A DNA stretch of 34,725 bases from Cochliopodium minus (taxonomy: Eukaryota; Discosea; Himatismenida; Cochliopodiidae), in assembly GCA_024220525.1 (NCBI GenBank), contig JAMYWO010000059.1:74011-108735 (forward strand). The letters run 5' to 3'. A program made the position numbers and the translations under genes. Below, one piece after another: positions 2,278 through 31,400 of the stretch. The notes beneath the pieces are model-generated. The model had not been told where the DNA came from. It worked only from the letters and a program-made list of their open reading frames with translations, and made no database searches. Each line of letters opens with the position of its first letter. Within the stretch, counting starts at the first letter, position 1.

Positions 2278-5200
2278 CCGGAGTAAAGTAAGAACAGACC
2301 CTAATGAGATCTTCAACTTCTGTCTTTGCACTTGGTGAAGCAACAATTACCTAAAACAAAAAAAAAAATTTTCAAAAAAAATAAAATTAAAAATTAAAAT
2401 GATAATTAAAATTATTCAAAAATTGAAAATTGAAAATTAAAAATTAAAATTAATTAAAAATAATAATTAAAAATTAAAATCATAAATAAAATTGATAAAA
2501 AAATTGATAAAAATATAATTTGGAAAATTAAATTGAAAATTAAAAATGGAAAATGGAAAATTACAAATTAAAAATTAAAATTAATTAAAAATAATAATTA
2601 AAAATTAAAATCACAAATAAAATTGATAAAAATATAATTTGAAAATTAAAAATTAAAAAAATAAAAAAATAAAAAAAATAAAAAAATTATAAATAAAATT
2701 TTTTTGTACAAGAGTTCTTGACTTAAAAAGGGTATAAAGCAAATGTTTGACGAAAGAAAATCTGAGGAGTTTCTCCAAACCAAGGGAACCCCCATTTTGG
2801 GTCTGCCACAAAACAGAGACGAAAGAGTTGATCCCTAATGAGTTCTCAGCGATGCATTTGGGCAAGTAGTTATGGATGTTCAATGGATCTAAATCATCAA
2901 ACTCATCTATTTTCCAATCTTCTTCTTCTTTAGGAATTATTTCTTTTATATTTCAAAAAAAAAAAATATTATCAAAAATAATTATTTAATTATTTTTTTG
3001 AATTTTTTTTTTTTGCATTTTTAATTATTTTTTTTGTGATTATTTTAATTATTTTTATCATTGCATTTTTTTAAATTATTTTTATTTTGTTCAAAAGAAT
3101 TTGTTATCTTTCATAAAATTAGTATTTATGCATTTTTCAAATTTCTATTATTTTTTGATTTTTTTTTTGTTTTCTATTCAAAGTGGAATTTTTTTTTTTT
3201 TTTTTACCATTCTGGGGAGGAGGAGGTTTGTTATAACTGCTAAAACTGTGGTGCTTATAATCATTATTACTGTTATGATGAAGATTGATCTCATTTTGGG
3301 AAATCTGATTAATCTCAATATTTTTATTATTATCATTGATATTATTATTAATTTCATCGATATTTTTATCATTTTCATTGATAATTTTATTAATTTCATT
3401 ATTATTAGTCTCATTGTTATTTTCTTTGTTATTAATAATATGATTGTTATTTTCTTTGTTATTATTAATATTATTATTAATGTTATTGTTGTTTTCAGGG
3501 AATTTGAAGCTGGAGAAGCTGTTTTGGTTGCTGGGAGGGTTGAAGAGGACGGGGTTGTGAGGGTTGCTGAGGTTGAAGTTGTTGGGTTGGTGCAGGTCAT
3601 AGTGGTTGTTCTTTTGATGTTTTGAAATGATGTCTTGTGTATGGTAAAGTGTTGCCAAATCCAAAGAACTGTTGGTAAAATAATAAAATATTTAAAAAAT
3701 GAAAAATTAACAAGAAAAAAACAAAAAATTAACAAATAAAAATAAAATTAAATAAAAGATTCAAAAATTTTAAAAAAATAAAAATAAAATAAAAATAAAA
3801 ATTAACAAGAAAAAAAATAAAAAAATAAAAAAATAAAAAAAATAAAAAAATAAAAAAAAAAATTAAAAAGAAAAAAAAATAAAAATAAAAAAATTTTAAA
3901 ATAAAAATTTCTAAAATAAAATAATTAAATAAAAACAAAAAAAAAAAAAAAAATAAAAATTAAAAATAAATTTTTAACCTTGTGTTACTTGTGTTGAAAA
4001 ATCCTCGAAAAGTTCGAGGAAGAGTAAGGACAAACTGTTGAAGGAAGAAGTATTCATATCCTCCGACTCTGTATCCGATTCTGGGAATGCATTCCGTTGT
4101 TTCTGCTTAAAATATAAACTAAAGAAATTGTGATTTTTTTAGTAAAAATTTTTTTTTGATCATTTAAATTGATGCATTTTTGATTTTGATTTTATGTATT
4201 TATTATTTTTATTATTTTTAATATGATATATATTTTTTAAAACAATTCAATAATTTTAGTTTTTTATTTTTTATTTTTTAATTATTTTTATTATTGCATT
4301 TAAATTGATTTTTTTATTTTTTTTATATTTTTATTTTTATATTATTATTTTATTTTTTTAAAAATAATTCAATCATTTTAGTAAATTTTATTTTTTGATT
4401 CATTTTTATTTGTTATTATTTAAATTGATGTTTTTTGATTTTTTATTTTAAATTTTTTGATTATTTTTTTACTTTGTTTATTTGCTTCCCAGTTAAAGTT
4501 GATGAGAGGAGAATGACCCAAAACCAAAGCAGAAGAAGGATGACTCATGATGAGAGTATCCTCTTCCTCCAACATGAGAATCATGGAAGATCTCTTGAAA
4601 TGCAGTTGGATTCTGTTAATCACTTTTTGGGCCACAAGGTATTGGTCTTCCGTCAATGTATCTATGTTCCTCAATGTTTTACCCGACAAACTTGCCACTT
4701 GTTTAACCTAACAAAAAAAAATTAAAAATTAAAAATTGATAATTTGAAATTTAAATAAAAAACAATAAAAAAAAAATCAAGAAAAAAAAAAACAATAAAA
4801 AATTATATTTAAAAAATGATAGAATAAAAAAAATTTAAAAATAATAGAATTTTTACAGTTTTGACAATCTTTGGCTTATAAGATGGTATTCCGAGTCTTC
4901 TTGTGATTTGTTCTATTAGATTTTGATCATCAACAGGCTCTTCATGTTTGTCCTCCTCTTTGCTGAGATTACCGCCAGAAGTACTGACAAAAAAGAAAGA
5001 AAATTTGATAAAATTTTTTATTTCCTAAAAAAAAAAAAAGAAAAAACTTTTTTTTTAAAAAAATCATTTACTGTTTGTCCTTGAAATGTTCTTGTAAATT
5101 TTCCAAGCTAATCTCGTTTTCTTTAGTGGTATTATTATCTCCTCCAATATCAACAGGCAAAGTAGTTGCATTATTAAGAGTATCTGTTGTATTAGTAGCA

Positions 5201-23200: not shown

Positions 23201-24458
23201 CTTTGAATATTCTCAATTTAATATCCAAAACTATAATTGCCAAAGATAAAAGTAAATCTTTAGTTGGAGACATGTTGAATAGAGGAGTAAAGAACTTGGA
23301 GATCTACAAATTTGTTTTTGAGAAGGGATTCACCATCGAGGACAATTTACTCCACCCACTATTTCTGTATCACAATGATCTTCAACTTTACAAGTTGTTT
23401 CACTATTATGGAGTCAGTTTTGACAAAATTTTCTTTCACCATTTCATATCATGCAACAAATCAGTCGAAATTTTAAAGTAAAAAAAACAAAATCAATTAT
23501 CATTATTTTTTAATTTATTTTTTATTTTGTATTGTTTTGTTTTTTTTTATTTTTATTTTTTTTTATTTTTAATTAATTTTTCTTTTTAGATTTTTTCTGG
23601 ACTTAAAATTAAATGTAAATCAGTTTGATCAGTATGGCAGGACTCCTCTTTGCATAGAATTGTTGATTCCCGAACCCTCTTTTGAAAGAATCAAATTTTT
23701 GTTGGAGCAAAAAGCCTCTTTCAACAATCTCAATTCTCACAACGTTTCAGCTGTTGAGATATTGATTAATCGAAAAGATGATAAAATTGACATTTTAAAA
23801 TTTGTCACTGAAAATTCAATATCTAATAATGGTTTTGTTTATTCCGAATACCTGGCCTTTTCTATTTTCTTTAAAAAGTCTATTGATTTCATTCGTGTAG
23901 TGTTGGAAAATTCTAATCCTAATTTTTTGGTCCAAAATTCTAGTATAATGATGATTGCTCTTAGATTAGATTATGGTAAAGATCACATCATAAATTTAAG
24001 ATTTTAATTCCAAAATTTTAAATATTCTTTTTAATTTAATTTTTCTTTTTTGTTTAGATAATTTTGAAGATTTGATTTATCTTTTGTTGGCACACAAAAC
24101 GTATTTTCCTCAATTTCTCTTCAAAAAAAAAAATAAAAAAAAAAAGCTCGGAAAAAAAGATATTATCATACAAAAGTTGATAGAAAAGAATAGTTATTGG
24201 AACACTGAAAAGTTTCACTTGTACCCTCCTATTTTTCAACAAAAAGTCAAAACCTTTTTTTTGATTAATAACCATATTTCTCTTAAAAATCGTGTTTTAA
24301 AGATACCCAAACCTGTTCTCAACAAAATACTCCTTTTATTGGCAGATCTTCAAGTTGCCTCATTGATAGAAAACAACAATTTTAACTTCAAAAATACTCT
24401 ATCTGATAAAGTAAGTTCTATCGAAAACAATAAAATTGGATTCAATCAATTTAATTGA
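20201..24458 (+). CDS. Large ankyrin-repeat protein with disordered NPF-containing N-terminus
   Basis: Five exons: 20201-21110, 21193-22899, 22982-23477, 23590-23975 and 24058-24458; 1299 aa, stop TGA. Residues 1-215 are low-complexity and Asn/Lys/Glu/Ser-rich with two NPF motifs close together (TINPFENIINPFEI, about 165-178), FVFGSPSKDTP and a Lys/Pro/Thr basic patch. From about 235 to the end come many degenerate ankyrin repeats; typical units read SSPLHYLFF, KETPLHLWCRK, LLKKADANLINSMGESPLT, LLENNASPNIVNSS, DIDGNTALHIS and LENKANPNILNYKG. Repeats are irregular and of the protist type. It is probably a protein-binding scaffold; NPF motifs suggest an EH-domain partner, an inference. A Lys-rich run near 24122-24148 is coding as read but could be intron-derived. 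It lies first in an ankyrin/Sel1/ankyrin/Sel1 series, 63 bp before the next gene. Confidence 0.85.
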
Positions 24459-24521
24459 TTCTCTCCAAAAATAAAATAAATAAAATAAATAAAATAAATA
24501 AAAATTTATAAAAAAATTGAA

Positions 24522-26773
24522 ATGAATAAATTAACTGACCCTAAAGAAGTTAATGATTTGATCAATTATGCAAATAATTTGGAATTCCCTTCTGAATTCC
24601 CAACCGCAAATTTTAAATTCTTCTATCATAAAGCCAAAACCGAAAATTGCCCTATCTCACAAGTAATCATATCAAGATGTGAGTATTAATTTTCATATAT
24701 ACTAATATATCAATCCTAATGAATGAAATAAAAGTGTATATATCAGGATCTGGTAAATGAATTTGAGAAATATCATTCAACAAGATATAAATTAATTAAT
24801 TAACCATTAGGAACATTTATAAATGAATTTGAAGCTATGAAAAATTGTGAATTGTCTTATGATCAGGGAAATCTGGGTATAATTTATTTTTTTAAAACCA
24901 ATTTTTTGAATAATGAAAAAAAAAATATAGTTGCTTTGGGATTAAAATACTATTATGGATGGGGTGTTTTCAAAGGTTTATAAATATTCATTATTTAATT
25001 TTGATTTCCTAATTCATTAAAGATAAATCACATGCAAAAAAAGTATTTGAAGAACATCTTTCCAAAAACTCTGAAAAAGATAGAAAAGATAATGTTCTTG
25101 CTCAATTCATGATAGCATTCATAGAACAAATGTTCGAAGATAGTAAAAAAAAAAAAAACTTTAAAATTAAATTTCTAACCCTTTTTTAATAGATCCTCAA
25201 AATGCAAAGATAATATATGAGAAAATAATTGATGATATTGATTTTGGTGTAAAAATAAAAAATTTTCTATTTTTTTTTGATTAAAAATAAAAAAATAAAG
25301 ACATTCAATAATTTGGGTTGTATTTATTATGTAAAATTCCTTGTTTTTTATTTTTTCTTTCATCTTTAATCGATATTTTTTGATTATTTAGAATGGAGAG
25401 GGAGTGGATAAAGATTTTGATAAAGCAAAAGTTCTTTATTTCGAAGGATTAAAAATGGGAAGTGTTGGTGAAAAAAAAATAAATTTTTTTCAATCCAAAT
25501 AAAAAAATTTATGAAAATAATTCAAAAAAATTTTATTTTTTTTTATTAAAGGAGCAATGTTAAATCTTGGAGTGATGTAAAAAAAAAAAAAAAAAAATCT
25601 TTAATTAAATTCGATTTTATTTTAATTATAGGCTGGAGAACGGACATGGATTTTGTAGAGATTATGGAAAGGCAATTCATTGTTTTGAAAAGGCAGGAGA
25701 GAAAGGAGATTATGATGCTATTTATTATGTAAAAAAAAATAATTTAATTTAATTAATTTATTCCAATAAAAATTTCTTCATTTTTTTTGTCAAAGGTTGG
25801 TAAGTTAAATATTTTTTTTTTTTTAATTCTTTTTTTTTTATTCCATTTTATTAGGAACAATGTATGAATTTGGGAATGGAGTAGAAGAAAATATTTTTCA
25901 AGCTATTGCTCATTACGAGAGTGCTGGTTTTCTTTTCTACTTTCTCTTTTTATTTTAATTCACTTTTTATTTCTCTTTTTTTTTTAAAAAAAAAATAAAA
26001 AAGCAAGTAATAATCTCCCTGAAGCTTTAACAAAACTTGTAATTTAAGATGTATTCAAGTTGATTTATAATTAAATTTATTTTTTTTTAAAAAAAATTTA
26101 TAGAGGTAAAAAGATTAAAATCAAAAAATCAAAAAAACTTTCAAAATAATGTTAATTTCATTAGTTATTTATACGAAAATGGATCAAAAATTGAAAAAAA
26201 TTTAAAAAAATCATTGGAATATCTCACAAAAGCAGCAGATTTAGGTTATTACCAATTATTTTAATTTCATTTTTATTTATTTATTATTTTAATTATTTTC
26301 AAATTTTATAATTATTTTTTAAATTTTTTTTTTTGATTTAAAGATGATAAATCATCTTGTTATAAACTTGGTCTTTCTTACTTTAATGAACAATACGGTT
26401 TGAAGCAAAACCACGAGTTGGCTGTCCACTACCTGAATAAATATCTCAAAATTGGAAAAGATCATGATGCAATGGATTTCATAAAAATTTCTCTCAAAGT
26501 AAAAAAAAAAATTTTAAAAATAATAAAAAAATAATAAAAAAATAATAAAAAAATAAAAAATTTTAGACAGGAAAAGTCATGTGGTCAACTGATTATCACA
26601 AGTTTTGGCCTCTTGAAGATCCTAAAAAACTTTCAGATCAGATTGTTCTTCTTCTTCTCATTTCCAAGCACCGCCTTTCTTTCCTGTCTTCTCTCTCTTT
26701 TTTTTTCATCAAGGGTGTTTGTATCAATTGCATCAAATTTTTGTCCATGGCTTGGTTGGATTGTAATTTATGA
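24522..26773 (+). CDS. Sel1-like repeat protein, 16 exons, with 4-nt microexon
   Basis: Exons: 24522-24678, 24735-24752, 24811-24876, 24931-24975, 25023-25142, 25192-25247, 25301-25330, 25392-25467, 25552-25576, 25632-25728, 25796-25799, 25855-25926, 26004-26038, 26106-26244, 26344-26498 and 26567-26773; 433 aa. Sel1 repeats are TPR-like helical pairs that bind proteins, as in ER-associated degradation adaptors and signalling scaffolds. Units seen: LGLKYYYGWGVFKDKSHAKK, FNNLGCIYYNGEGVDKDFDK, LNLGVMLENGHGFCRDYGKA, DAIYYVGTMYEFGNGVEEN, FISYLYENGSKIEKNLKKS and YKLGLSYFNEQYGLKQN. The C-terminal about 69 residues (MWSTDYHKFWP, then a hydrophobic LLLLISKHR part) form a separate short module. No signal peptide. 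Substrate and partners are unknown. The 26106 acceptor (tagag) is chosen by phase and is less certain. Confidence 0.83.
24735..24752 (+). other. 18-nt microexon of the Sel1 gene
   Basis: Flanked by aaaag and gtaaat; encodes (L)YISGS(G), joining VIISR to GTFINEFEAM. It matches the first Sel1-like helix turn, with small split codons at both sides. Confidence 0.6.
25796..25799 (+). other. 4-nt microexon of the Sel1 gene
   Basis: gttg between caaag and gtaagt, the best donor in the gene. It gives Val plus the first base of Gly, restoring DAIYYVGTMYEFGNGV, an exact Sel1 consensus (DA-x-Y-x-LG-x-MY-E-G-GV). Skipping it shifts the frame. Confidence 0.75.
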
Positions 26774-26936
26774 AACAATAATTATAAAAAAAAAAATCAA
26801 TTTAAGAATCTTAATCCAAGTTTTTTTTTTATGATTTTGATTTTGATAAAATAAAAATTAAAATAGTTAAAAAAAAATTGATCCATTTTTATATATTTCT
26901 TGAAACTTTCTCTTTTTTTTTTTATATAAGATAATC
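26774..26936. promoter_or_regulatory. Intergenic region Sel1 / second ankyrin gene
   Basis: 163 bp, same-direction neighbours. It holds the 3' end of one transcript and the promoter of the next. A T-run followed by tatataagataatcATG precedes the start. Nothing else recognised. Confidence 0.35.
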
Positions 26937-28393
26937 ATGGAAGATAAACTCAATTTGATAAGGGATCTTGAAAATTATTTTGATCCAAGCTATGATTTGT
27001 TCAAAAAATTAGATTTTGGAGAAGAATTAATCTTAAAAGAAGCCTTGGAAAAAAAAGATCTATCCAATATAATCCGTAAAAATTATTATCCTCCTTCCAT
27101 TCTTAATTTTTTTTTTAATTATTTGAATCAGATGAAGATTCATTGAATACACCTCTTCATAATTTATTTTCACAAGAAAAAGAAACAAAGATGGAGGATA
27201 TTAATTTTTTTTTGGAAAATAAGTGCGACCTCAACCTTAGAAACAGGTTCCAAATAACACCTCTCCACCTCTCTATGAGATGCAACAAACTAGAAACAAT
27301 AAAATATTTAATTAATTATTCAAAGTTTAAAACCGAAGAAATAAAAGAAGAGGATAAAAATATTTTGTTGTTTGCATGCAGAAAGAACGAAAATTTGGAA
27401 GTAATAAAGTATTTGGTTGATGAGCTAAAGTTGGATTACAATCTGATTGGATCTTTTTCAGAAACTCCATTTCAAATTGCAATCAGATACAACAAAAACA
27501 CAGAAATAGTCAATTACTTTTTGGATGAAAAAGAATTTGATATGAGTTTTAAAGATCCGGATGGGGACGGGTTGGTCAATCAAGCAATATTGAGCGAAAG
27601 AAACGGAGTTGAAGTGGTAAAGAAATTAGTTGAGAAAAAATGCGACATAAACTTGGAAAATAAATTCGGGCAAAACAGCTTACATGTTGCTTCGATGTAT
27701 CATAACTTTGAAATTGTCAACTTTCTCATTGAAAACAAAGCTGATGTCAATTTGAGAGACTGGGATGATCTTTTTCCTGTCGAATTAGCTCTCCAAAATT
27801 CTAACAATTTTGATATCATGAATCTCCTTATAGATTCAACCGAATTTGATGACGAAGACAACAAAAAACATTCCATTTGTAAATCTGTTTTCAATGATAA
27901 TCTTGAGGTTGTTAAACATTTTGCTGATGTCTATCAAATTGATTTTATGGGAGAAGATGAAAATGGGGAAATTCTTTTCCATAAAGCGCTCGAAAAAAGC
28001 AAAAACCTAGATGTCATAAAATTTCTCATTGAAGAAAAGAAGTGTGATCTCAAAAGCAAAAGTGAATACGGAGAATCTCTTCTTGTTTTGTCTTGCAAAT
28101 TTTATGGTTTCAAGTATGAAATTTTCAAGTATCTTGTTGAAGAAAAAGGTTTTGATATCAACGAAAAATATGGTGAGACTACTTGTCTTCATCAATTTTT
28201 CTCCAACTTGGATTATAGTTCTTTCCCAAATCCTGAGCCTTTGTTGGTCTTTTGTTTGTCAAATGGTGCACTTTTCGATTTGGAAAATACTGAGGGTGAT
28301 ACTTCAAGATTAATTATTCAAACTAGATATGGAAGAGAATATTTCGAGTTGATTGATAAAACTATTGATGAATTTAAAAAAAAAAAAATATAA
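26937..28393 (+). CDS. Ankyrin-repeat protein, 466 aa
   Basis: Two exons: 26937-27075 and 27132-28393, stop TAA. The 56-nt intron removes a frame that would end 15 codons later, and the join gives KDLSNIIHEDSLNTPLHNLF. About eleven ankyrin units follow: LNTPLHNLFS, FQITPLHLSMRCNKLETIKYL, NILLFACRKNENLEVIKYLV, ETPFQIAIRYNKNTEIVNYF, GQNSLHVASMYHNFEIVNFL, IENKADVNLRDWDDLFPVEL and GESLLVLSCKFYGFKYEIFK among them. The tail is Lys-rich (DEFKKKKI). There is no TM or signal peptide; probably a cytosolic scaffold. It is a shorter relative of the 20201-24458 gene by repeat style (LIENKADVN / LLENKANPN). Its stop is only 22 bp before the next start codon. Confidence 0.85.
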
Positions 28394-28415: not shown

Positions 28416-31400
28416 ATGAAAGAGATATTCAAATCAAAATCAAATATTCTCAAATATTTCCCTTCAAAAAGATTCTTCTCAAATCTTCCTAAATCTTTCA
28501 ACATTGCCAAAAATTTGTTATCAAATAAAGCCAAATTCAACATAAAATCTCCAATTTCAATTAAACAAGATTATCATTCGACCAAACAATCCAAATACAT
28601 AGGTATGTAAAGAATTGAATAAATTTTATGAATAAAAATTTTTCAATCAAAACTCATATCATTGAAAGATGTAATAGTAGAATCAAAATCATTGAAGGAA
28701 GGTAAAATTATAATTATAATTCTTTGTATCACCCAACAATTCACTTAAATTGACATTTGAAGATTATGAGAATTCAATAAAAGCATTCAATTTGATATTG
28801 GGAATAGATGGCATCGAAGATATAGAAGCAGCTCAAAAGATATGCTTGGAAAAATGCACAGAAGAAAATAAATTTGCCGAAGCGATGAAATATCATTACG
28901 GATGGGGAAGGGAGGCAGATAATAAAACCTCCACAAGAATGTTTGGAGAAATAATAAAAGATGAAGCGATGGACAAGTCAATAGTCTCCCTTTCTTATCT
29001 TTTTCTCGCAAGATATTATGAGCAGGGATTCGGTGTCAAAAAGGATCTCAATAAGGCTTCAGAATATTATAGGGAAGCATTGAGGCTCAACAAATCTCTC
29101 GTCAATTTCATGGCTAAGAATGGAGTGTTGGTAGGTAAAGAAAGAAAAAAGAAATCAAAAAAACATACCTAATTAACAATAATGGAACAAATATAGAGGA
29201 TTATACTTTTTGATTCTGGATTATATTTATATTTTCATTTTATATTATTTAATTTTTTATTTTATTTTTTAATTTTTTTTTATAAATCTATTATTCTTTA
29301 CAAAAAATTTTCATATCCTATATAAATCTTTTATTCTTTTTTCTGACATTTTTGAATTTTCATTCTCCTTCACTTCAAACATTTTTTTATCGTTTTTATT
29401 GATTGAAATCCATTTTGGTTGTTCAATTAAACTATTGATCTTGAACACTATATTAATAAAAATATCAAAAATAAAAAATTTTCTTTTCAAAACCTTCATT
29501 CACAAATGATCAAAACGAAATTGATTTGAACAAAAAAAAAAATTGTTAATTTAAACTTTTAAAGATCTTCAAAAATAATTCACAAAAATTTTTTTAATTA
29601 ATTAATTTAATTTTTAATTTAATTTTTTTAAATTTATAATAATTTTTTTGAAAGACACTAAAAAAGCGGTGGAACTTTTCCAACAAGCCACTGAAAAGGG
29701 AGATGTGGAGGCGATGTTCCAAGTGGCTTCCATCTTCGAACAACAGGACATCGAGAAGGCCATAGAGATGTACAACAAAGCAATTTCTCTCCAACACTCT
29801 CCTTCAATGAATAATCTCGCCATCATCTATATGAATGGTGATAAAAAAAAATTTTCAATTTTTTTATTTTTTATTTATTTTTTTTTTATTTATTTTTTAT
29901 TTATTTTTTTTTTATTTTTTTTTTATTTTTTTTTTTAATATTTAATTTTTATTTATAATTTTTTTTTTAAAAAAAAAGGAATTAATGGTGCAAAAGAAGA
30001 TGTAAAACAAGCTTTGGATTTATTTGAAAGAGCAGCAAAATTAGGAAACACAGACGCTATGTATTAATTTTGATTTAATTTTTTTCAATATTTTTATTGT
30101 ATTATTTACATTTTTTTTTTAAATATTTTTTATTTAAATATTTATTTTTTTATTTTAAAAAGGTTTAACTATGCTAACACTTATGACACTGCATTTAAGG
30201 TCGAAAAAGACTATCACAAAGCCTTTCAGTTTTATAACCAAGCCGCTCTTTTGGGTCATCCAAAAGCAAATTTTTATGCTGGATATTTTTATCACATTGG
30301 AAAATCTGGTAATTTATTATTTTTATCATATTTTTCAATCAAAATTATATTTTTTAATTGTTTTTAAATTTTGATTTTTAATTATTTTTAATTTTAATTA
30401 TTTTTAATTTTTTAAAATTATTTTTTATTTTTTAAAATTATTTTTAATTTTTTAAAATTTTTGATTTCTTAATTTATTTTACCATTTTTTAAAATAAATT
30501 TCCAAATTTTACAATAGGTATCAAGGATATAAAGAAAGCAGTTGAGTTCTACAAAAAAGCAGTTGAATATAACAATACAGACGCTATGAATAATTTGGCA
30601 GTTATTTATAGATATGGAGATGAAGGAATAGGTATTTTTTCATTAATTATTTTCATTTTTTATTAATTATTTTTTTTAATTTTAATTTATTTTTATTTTA
30701 TTTTTAAATTTTTTTTTTTTTTATTTTTGTTAGAAATTGATCTCAAATCTTCACTTGATCTTCAAACTCGTGCAGCAGAATTAGGAAACATCAACGCTAT
30801 AAACGTATTAAAAAAAAAAATAGTTTTATTCGCAAAAATTTCAAAAAAAAAAAAAAAATTTATAAGAATTTAGGATATGTTTACGAAAGAGGAGAATTGG
30901 GAGTTGGTAAAAAAATTGTTTATTTAAATATTAATATTTTATTTTATTTATTTTATTTTATTTAAATATTAATATTTTTTTATTTTATTTTTATTTAAAA
31001 TTTTTTTATTTTATTTTATTTTTTTTATTTTATTTTTAGAACCAAATATCAAAAAAGCTATCGAATTATATGAGAAAGCTTCACAAGCACAGTTTCCTCT
31101 CGCAATGTACAACCTTGGGATCATCTACGAGAAAGGGGCAGAGGGAATCAGTGTGGACATCAAAAAAGCTCTCGATTATTTCGAAAAAGCAAGCAAAATT
31201 GGTCATCCTGATTCCTTATTTCACATTGCTGATATTTATCGTACTGGAAAGGGTTTAAACAAAATTATTTTTGTTTATTTTTTATTTTTTATTATTTTTT
31301 CTATTTTATTTCATTATTTTTTTGTTTATCTTTAATTTAATTTTTAATCATATTTTACATATTTATTATTTTATTTTTAATTAAATTTTTTTTAAAATTT

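What the first reader, a model, noticed from the sequence alone, without database searches (positions are those of the whole stretch)
25729..25854. A 4-nt exon is needed to keep a Sel1 repeat in frame
Seen: exon 25632-25728 ends in phase 0 and exon 25855-25926 needs one preceding base. The only bridge is gttg (25796-25799), flanked by caaag and gtaagt. The join gives DAIYYVGTMYEFGNGV, a perfect Sel1 consensus. Four-nt exons are rare and need special spliceosome handling.
Basis: partly seen in the sequence, partly recalled or inferred. Interest (0 to 1): 0.82.

Follow-up and report, generated by a model that had tools for sequence, protein, structure and literature searches.

The report
Four-base exon in Sel1-repeat gene
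A protist gene for a Sel1-repeat protein very probably contains an exon only four bases long, which keeps one repeat in frame; such microexons are already known in plants and fungi, so this is a neat new example and not a new kind of thing.

Summary
Exon 25632-25728 ends in phase 0, exon 25855-25926 needs one base (mod 3), and gttg (25796-25799) lies between caaag and gtaagt. Of 11 open GT-AG chains enumerated across the gap, only this one keeps the Sel1 repeat YY-V-G-TMYEFGNGV. A spliced alignment to a Sel1 profile built from database proteins chose it unprompted. Forbidding it costs about 31 bits, and Pfam Sel1 drops from 50.0 to about 20 bits. Chance: 217 of 20000 shuffled introns hold an equivalent 4-nt exon, 11 with splice sites as good; of 62 control introns put out of frame, one was rescued as well. 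With an 18-nt exon added, the gene (24522-26773) reads 451 codons through 14 GT-AG introns of 47-99 nt, which argues against a pseudogene. A U1 candidate has the canonical 5' end, complementary to the microexon's GTAAGT donor. No cDNA or orthologue was found, so inclusion in mRNA is inferred. One-nt exons and an RT-PCR-validated 4-nt rice exon are in print. Verdict: probably real, a new member of a known kind.

The parts
24522..26773 (+). Sel1-repeat protein gene, 15 exons, 451 codons, open from ATG to TAA when the 18-nt and 4-nt exons are included
   Evidence: Pfam Sel1 122.4 bits, 5 stretches
25632..25728 (+). upstream exon, ends in phase 0 (...DAIYY)
25729..25795 (+). upstream intron, 67 nt, gtaaaaa...gtcaaag; donor 6.1 and acceptor 5.9 bits
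25796..25799 (+). 4-nt microexon GTTG: Val codon plus first base of a Gly codon
25800..25854 (+). downstream intron, 55 nt, gtaagtt...ttattag; donor GTAAGT complementary to the U1 candidate's 5' end
25855..25926 (+). downstream exon (G|GA ACA ATG TAT..., GTMYEFGNGVEENIFQAIAHYESA)
24735..24752 (+). 18-nt exon (LYISGS), the only open GT-AG bridge found between exon 1 and exon 3 in the enumerated range; weak splice sites
   Evidence: site sum -5.2 bits; Sel1 16.3 bits with it, no match without
26104..26105 (+). possible 2-nt exon AG, an alternative to the longer exon 26106-26244; undecided
   Evidence: (10.9 bits)

Best explanation
GTTG at 25796-25799 is a coding microexon, probably constitutive, of a Sel1-repeat gene in an AT-rich eukaryote with short introns. 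Shown from sequence: frame need, GT-AG sites on both sides, ordinary intron lengths, restoration of a complete Sel1 repeat, and an otherwise open gene. Inferred: the two introns are recognised one by one (intron definition). Because U2AF/U2 at the upstream 3' site and U1 at the downstream 5' site can hardly both sit 4 nt apart, they would be removed in sequence. The downstream intron probably goes first, helped by its GTAAGT match to U1; GTTG then becomes the start of a normal-sized exon and the upstream intron follows. Skipping it, or retaining the upstream intron, gives a truncated protein.
For: Spliced Viterbi alignment to a cyclic Sel1 profile from 111 repeats of database proteins, any exon length allowed, picks 25729-25795 and 25800-25854. 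With trained sites and a 13-bit charge per intron, banning the acceptor costs 31.3 bits (31.0). All four sites score positive: 6.1, 5.9, 0.9, 2.4. Pfam Sel1, which is independent of my profile, on the local piece: 50.0 bits with GTTG, 19.8 skipped, 20.1 upstream intron retained, 44.9 for a non-canonical TA-AG join. Controls: 4 of 248 artificial frame breaks in 62 introns are rescued with 31 bits or more, all in one intron; 11 of 20000 shuffles match register, residues and site quality. A U1 candidate begins AUACUUACCUG. The 15-exon frame is open.
Against: No cDNA; two protein searches gave no orthologue (115 hits at 22-42% identity, partial coverage; 20 candidates, none at E 0.001). No paralogue aligned carries the same microexon, and the exact 14-mer AAAGGTTGGTAAGT occurs once in the genome, so there is no comparative support. 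Shuffled introns reach the whole-path score by some structure, not always a microexon, in 56 of 1500 cases. My profile seeds came from the hits, whose query held the GTTG residues, and were picked by a pattern that requires L-G at this very place, which favours a Gly there. The donor GTAAGT is atypical of inferred donors (1 of 98; GTAAAA 37 of 98). The exon 1 to exon 3 junction works only through weak sites, leaving some room for a decaying gene.
Confidence: 0.82

Rival explanations
1. The junction is simply broken (pseudogene, or a small indel or assembly error) and GTTG is a chance cryptic exon.
For: Chance rescue is not negligible: 217 of 20000 shuffles hold a 4-nt exon of the right register; one of 62 control introns rescued a frame break as strongly; 56 of 1500 shuffles reach the path score by any structure. 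Exon 1 to exon 3 needs weak splice sites.
Against: The other junctions of the gene are open with GT-AG introns and the protein runs 451 codons; with site quality counted, chance falls to 11 of 20000.
Confidence: 0.11
2. One intron is removed with a non-canonical donor (TATG|TAAAAA...ATTAG), giving YY-G-TMYEF with one residue fewer.
For: It would restore the frame with one splicing event; Pfam Sel1 still scores 44.9 bits.
Against: It needs a TA-AG intron one base beside a GT donor of 6.1 bits, and removes a residue from the repeat; the GTTG form scores 50.0. It was not covered by the GT-AG enumeration.
Confidence: 0.03
3. The protein ends by retention or skipping (a truncated product such as ...YYVKKNNLI or ...YYEQCMNLGME), and 25855 onwards belongs to another gene or a regulated isoform.
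For: Both truncated frames exist in the sequence.
Against: Sel1 repeats continue in register across the junction. I did not search for a separate start of the downstream part.
Confidence: 0.04

Closest known systems
Plant microexons of 1-15 nt, including a 4-nt rice exon and 1-nt exons of APC11 and VPS55 (PMC8831610, passages; PMC4674806, passages)
   Same: tiny coding exon between GT-AG introns, frame-critical, often missed by annotation; VPS55 microexons have GTRAGT donors, here GTAAGT
   Different: those have RNA-seq or RT-PCR proof and conservation across species; here neither exists
One-nt exon of Fusarium CYP621A (PMC12940212, abstract and discussion)
   Same: inferred from out-of-phase exons inside a conserved protein motif; the authors' cryptic-exon rescue model could apply here
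   Different: 24 genes share it and SRA reads of two species confirm it; here one gene, no reads
Potato invertase 9-nt microexon (as described in PMC4674806, passage)
   Same: removal of the downstream intron before the upstream one is the order proposed here
   Different: reported from experiment there, inferred here

Membership tests
Spliceosomal coding microexon | exon of 15 nt or less | tested here: met
   4 nt, 25796-25799
Spliceosomal coding microexon | flanked by introns with canonical GT-AG sites | tested here: met
   gtaaaaa..caaag and gtaagt..attag; site scores all positive
Spliceosomal coding microexon | needed for frame or for a conserved motif | tested here: met
Spliceosomal coding microexon | included in mature mRNA | not testable with these tools
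   no transcript-derived protein found; no reads held
Spliceosomal coding microexon | conserved in relatives or paralogues | tested here: inconclusive
   no copy among the Sel1 loci aligned or by exact 14-mer; no related species held
Sel1-repeat protein (PF08238) | match above Pfam's curated cut-off, several repeats | tested here: met
   122.4 bits against 30.7, 5 stretches
Recursive splicing ratchet point (zero-nt exon) | AG|GT used in full, leaving no base in the mRNA | tested here: not met
   the sequence does read AG|GTTG, but a zero-nt exon leaves the frame broken (join without GTTG)

The most novel reading that the evidence does not exclude
One gene carries a series of vanishing exons (18 nt at 24735, 4 nt at 25796, 2 nt at 26104) that keep Sel1 repeats in register. 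This would suggest that this lineage's intron-definition spliceosome tolerates exons down to 2 nt and that repeat arrays preserve them.
Probability: 0.2. Interest if true: 0.5.

Novelty: new member of a known kind. Interest (0 to 1): 0.33.

Why it matters
It would add a 4-nt coding exon from an AT-rich protist with short introns to published cases that, as far as I saw or recall, come mainly from plants, fungi and animals. It would suggest that such exons can be spliced where introns are 50-100 nt and most donors are weak. It is also a warning that automatic gene models of such genomes may truncate or frameshift repeat proteins.

Tried and rejected
Organism: the SSU rRNA family search failed twice with tool errors and a universal SSU 17-mer had no match. 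A guess at Anaeramoeba was looked up (search listing and passages); nothing seen supports it and it is not claimed.

First reading of exon 1: joining 24678 to 24811 gives TGA, which looked like a pseudogene. Enumeration (donors 24560-24700, acceptors 24700-24830, middle exon of 60 nt or less) found an 18-nt exon as the only open bridge. Flat splice scoring gave many spurious tiny exons, so trained sites and controls were used. In the trained run 10 exons of 12 nt or less were proposed in 20 loci plus the window. Apart from GTTG and the 2-nt AG of the same gene, the other 8 had poor sites, inserted residues or no score gain; the next best, 6 nt in L049, gained 27.9 bits but with both donors at -4.2. 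Larger small exons also gained: 13 nt in L051 50.8, 20 and 15 nt in L054 24.2 and 14.8. In 38 further loci (three hold this same gene, several others overlap the 20) no other exon of 12 nt or less gained more than 11.8 bits. Literature searches for 4-nt exons and for microexons in protists. They do not show that protist 4-nt exons are unpublished; PMC4739763 (passages) describes a search for 3-15 nt microexons in a unicellular relative of animals, of which I saw no counts.

Full report
Setting. The window is C59:74011-108735 of a 44.65 Mb assembly in 598 contigs, 15-30% GC along the window, with many Sel1 matches in the genome (150 scored, a cap). The gene in question lies on the + strand, 24522-26773.

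Check. Phases, coordinates and flanks are as reported. The direct join gives YYEQCMNLGME and a stop; with GTTG it gives YYVGTMYEFGNGVEENIFQ.

Alignment. A nucleotide-level spliced Viterbi aligner was written that fits DNA to a cyclic Sel1 profile, allowing GT-AG introns in any phase and exons of any length. The profile comes from 111 repeats in the protein hits; the query of that search held the GTTG residues, and the seeds were picked by a pattern that demands L-G at repeat positions 4-5, so a Gly at this place is favoured. On 24401-26900 the best path uses introns 25729-25795 and 25800-25854, hence GTTG. With splice-site models trained on inferred introns of 20 Sel1 loci plus the window (introns beside exons under 24 nt were not used for training), forbidding that acceptor costs 31.3 bits. 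The donor, acceptor, donor, acceptor scores are 6.1, 5.9, 0.9 and 2.4 bits.

Enumeration. Of 11 open GT-AG chains between the two exons (introns 35 nt or more, middle exon 60 nt or less), one keeps the Sel1 repeat. Pfam Sel1, a model independent of mine, scores the local piece 50.0 bits with GTTG, 44.9 for a non-canonical TA-AG join lacking the Val, 19.8 skipped, 20.1 with the upstream intron retained.

Chance. (a) 1500 dinucleotide shuffles of the 126-nt interval: 56 reach the real whole-path score by any structure (the eight best all by one intron and a longer exon), 202 use an exon of 12 nt or less. (b) 20000 shuffles, direct count: 2686 hold a frame-restoring exon of 12 nt or less, 217 one of 4 nt coding a hydrophobic residue plus Gly, 11 with middle sites as good. 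(c) 62 control introns, chosen with flanking exons of 40 nt or more and good sites: intact, 0 of 62 use an exon of 12 nt or less, which the choice partly ensures. With 1, 2, 4 or 5 bases removed after the intron, 7 of 248 best paths use such an exon and 4 of 248 are rescued with 31 bits or more, all four from one intron of L052. A broken junction would thus look this good by luck between once in 27 and once in 1800 cases, depending on what is counted.

Whole gene. With GTTG and an 18-nt exon at 24735-24752 the gene reads 451 codons from ATG to TAA through 14 GT-AG introns of 47-99 nt, median 59.5. As single introns the two spots would be 126 and 132 nt, longer than any other in the gene. This is an observation on one gene: inferred introns elsewhere are often that long (44 of 98 are 126 nt or more, a set that includes false ones). 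The 18-nt exon has weak sites (sum -5.2 bits); with it the exon 1-4 piece reaches 16.3 bits of Sel1, below the cut-off, and without it nothing. At 26039-26164 two readings are open: one intron to 26105 and a longer exon, or a 2-nt exon AG with a second intron. My profile prefers the second by 10.9 bits and Pfam scores 38.6 against 29.7, but its last acceptor is poor (-3.4) and the first is simpler; this is left undecided.

Machinery. The one U1 match in the genome search (36.7 bits, below the family's gathering score of 69.5) begins AUACUUACCUG, the canonical 5' end. Inferred donors are mostly GTAAAA-like (GTAAAA itself 37 of 98), GTAAGT 1 of 98. The microexon's downstream donor is GTAAGT, 7 of 9 matches to CAG|GTAAGT, tied for best of the gene's 14. 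This fits a tiny exon helped by a strong downstream U1 site, as reported for plant VPS55 (PMC8831610, passage), but it is one case, and by this genome's own donor model the site is only fair (0.9 bits).

Comparative evidence is absent. The genome has no close paralogue (matches outside this gene 26-49% identity), no second exact copy of AAAGGTTGGTAAGT, and no orthologue was found in the protein collection (each limited to a range of protein lengths).

Known kinds. One-nt exons in Arabidopsis (PMC4674806) and Fusarium (PMC12940212), and a 4-nt rice microexon (PMC8831610), are in print, so the finding is a new member of a known kind. Special spliceosome handling is not shown; sequential, intron-defined splicing is the likely route and is inference.

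Noticed in passing
window 24735-24752: An 18-nt exon TGTATATATCAGGATCTG is the only open GT-AG bridge found between exon 1 and the exon at 24811; it would supply the YxxGxG core of a diverged Sel1 repeat.
   Followed up: partly
window 26104-26105: A 2-nt exon AG would give a complete Sel1 repeat (EALTKLSYLYENG); the simpler rival is one intron 26039-26105 and a longer exon.
   Followed up: partly
window 29651-31254 and 28801-29079: Further Sel1-repeat exons downstream (333 and 63 bits in the flat spliced alignment); the smallest exon proposed there was 40 nt.
   Followed up: partly
window 27119-28393: A long open frame of 424 codons that looks ankyrin-repeat-like by eye (label recalled, not tested).
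   Followed up: no
L062 1501-1663 (- strand): U1 snRNA candidate with canonical 5' end but a body scoring well below Rfam's gathering score.
   Followed up: partly
L059 1462-3594: HSP90 ORF of 710 aa without introns, 98% identical to an unnamed EukProt transcript, so transcriptome data of a near relative should exist.
   Followed up: partly
G000:C30:190833-191153: Sel1 repeats inside an open frame of 8148 codons, very long for an AT-rich genome.
   Followed up: no
L051 (- strand) 4374-4386: A 13-nt exon proposed in another Sel1 gene gains 50.8 bits although its sites are only middling (2.7, 2.0, -1.5, -2.7).
   Followed up: no
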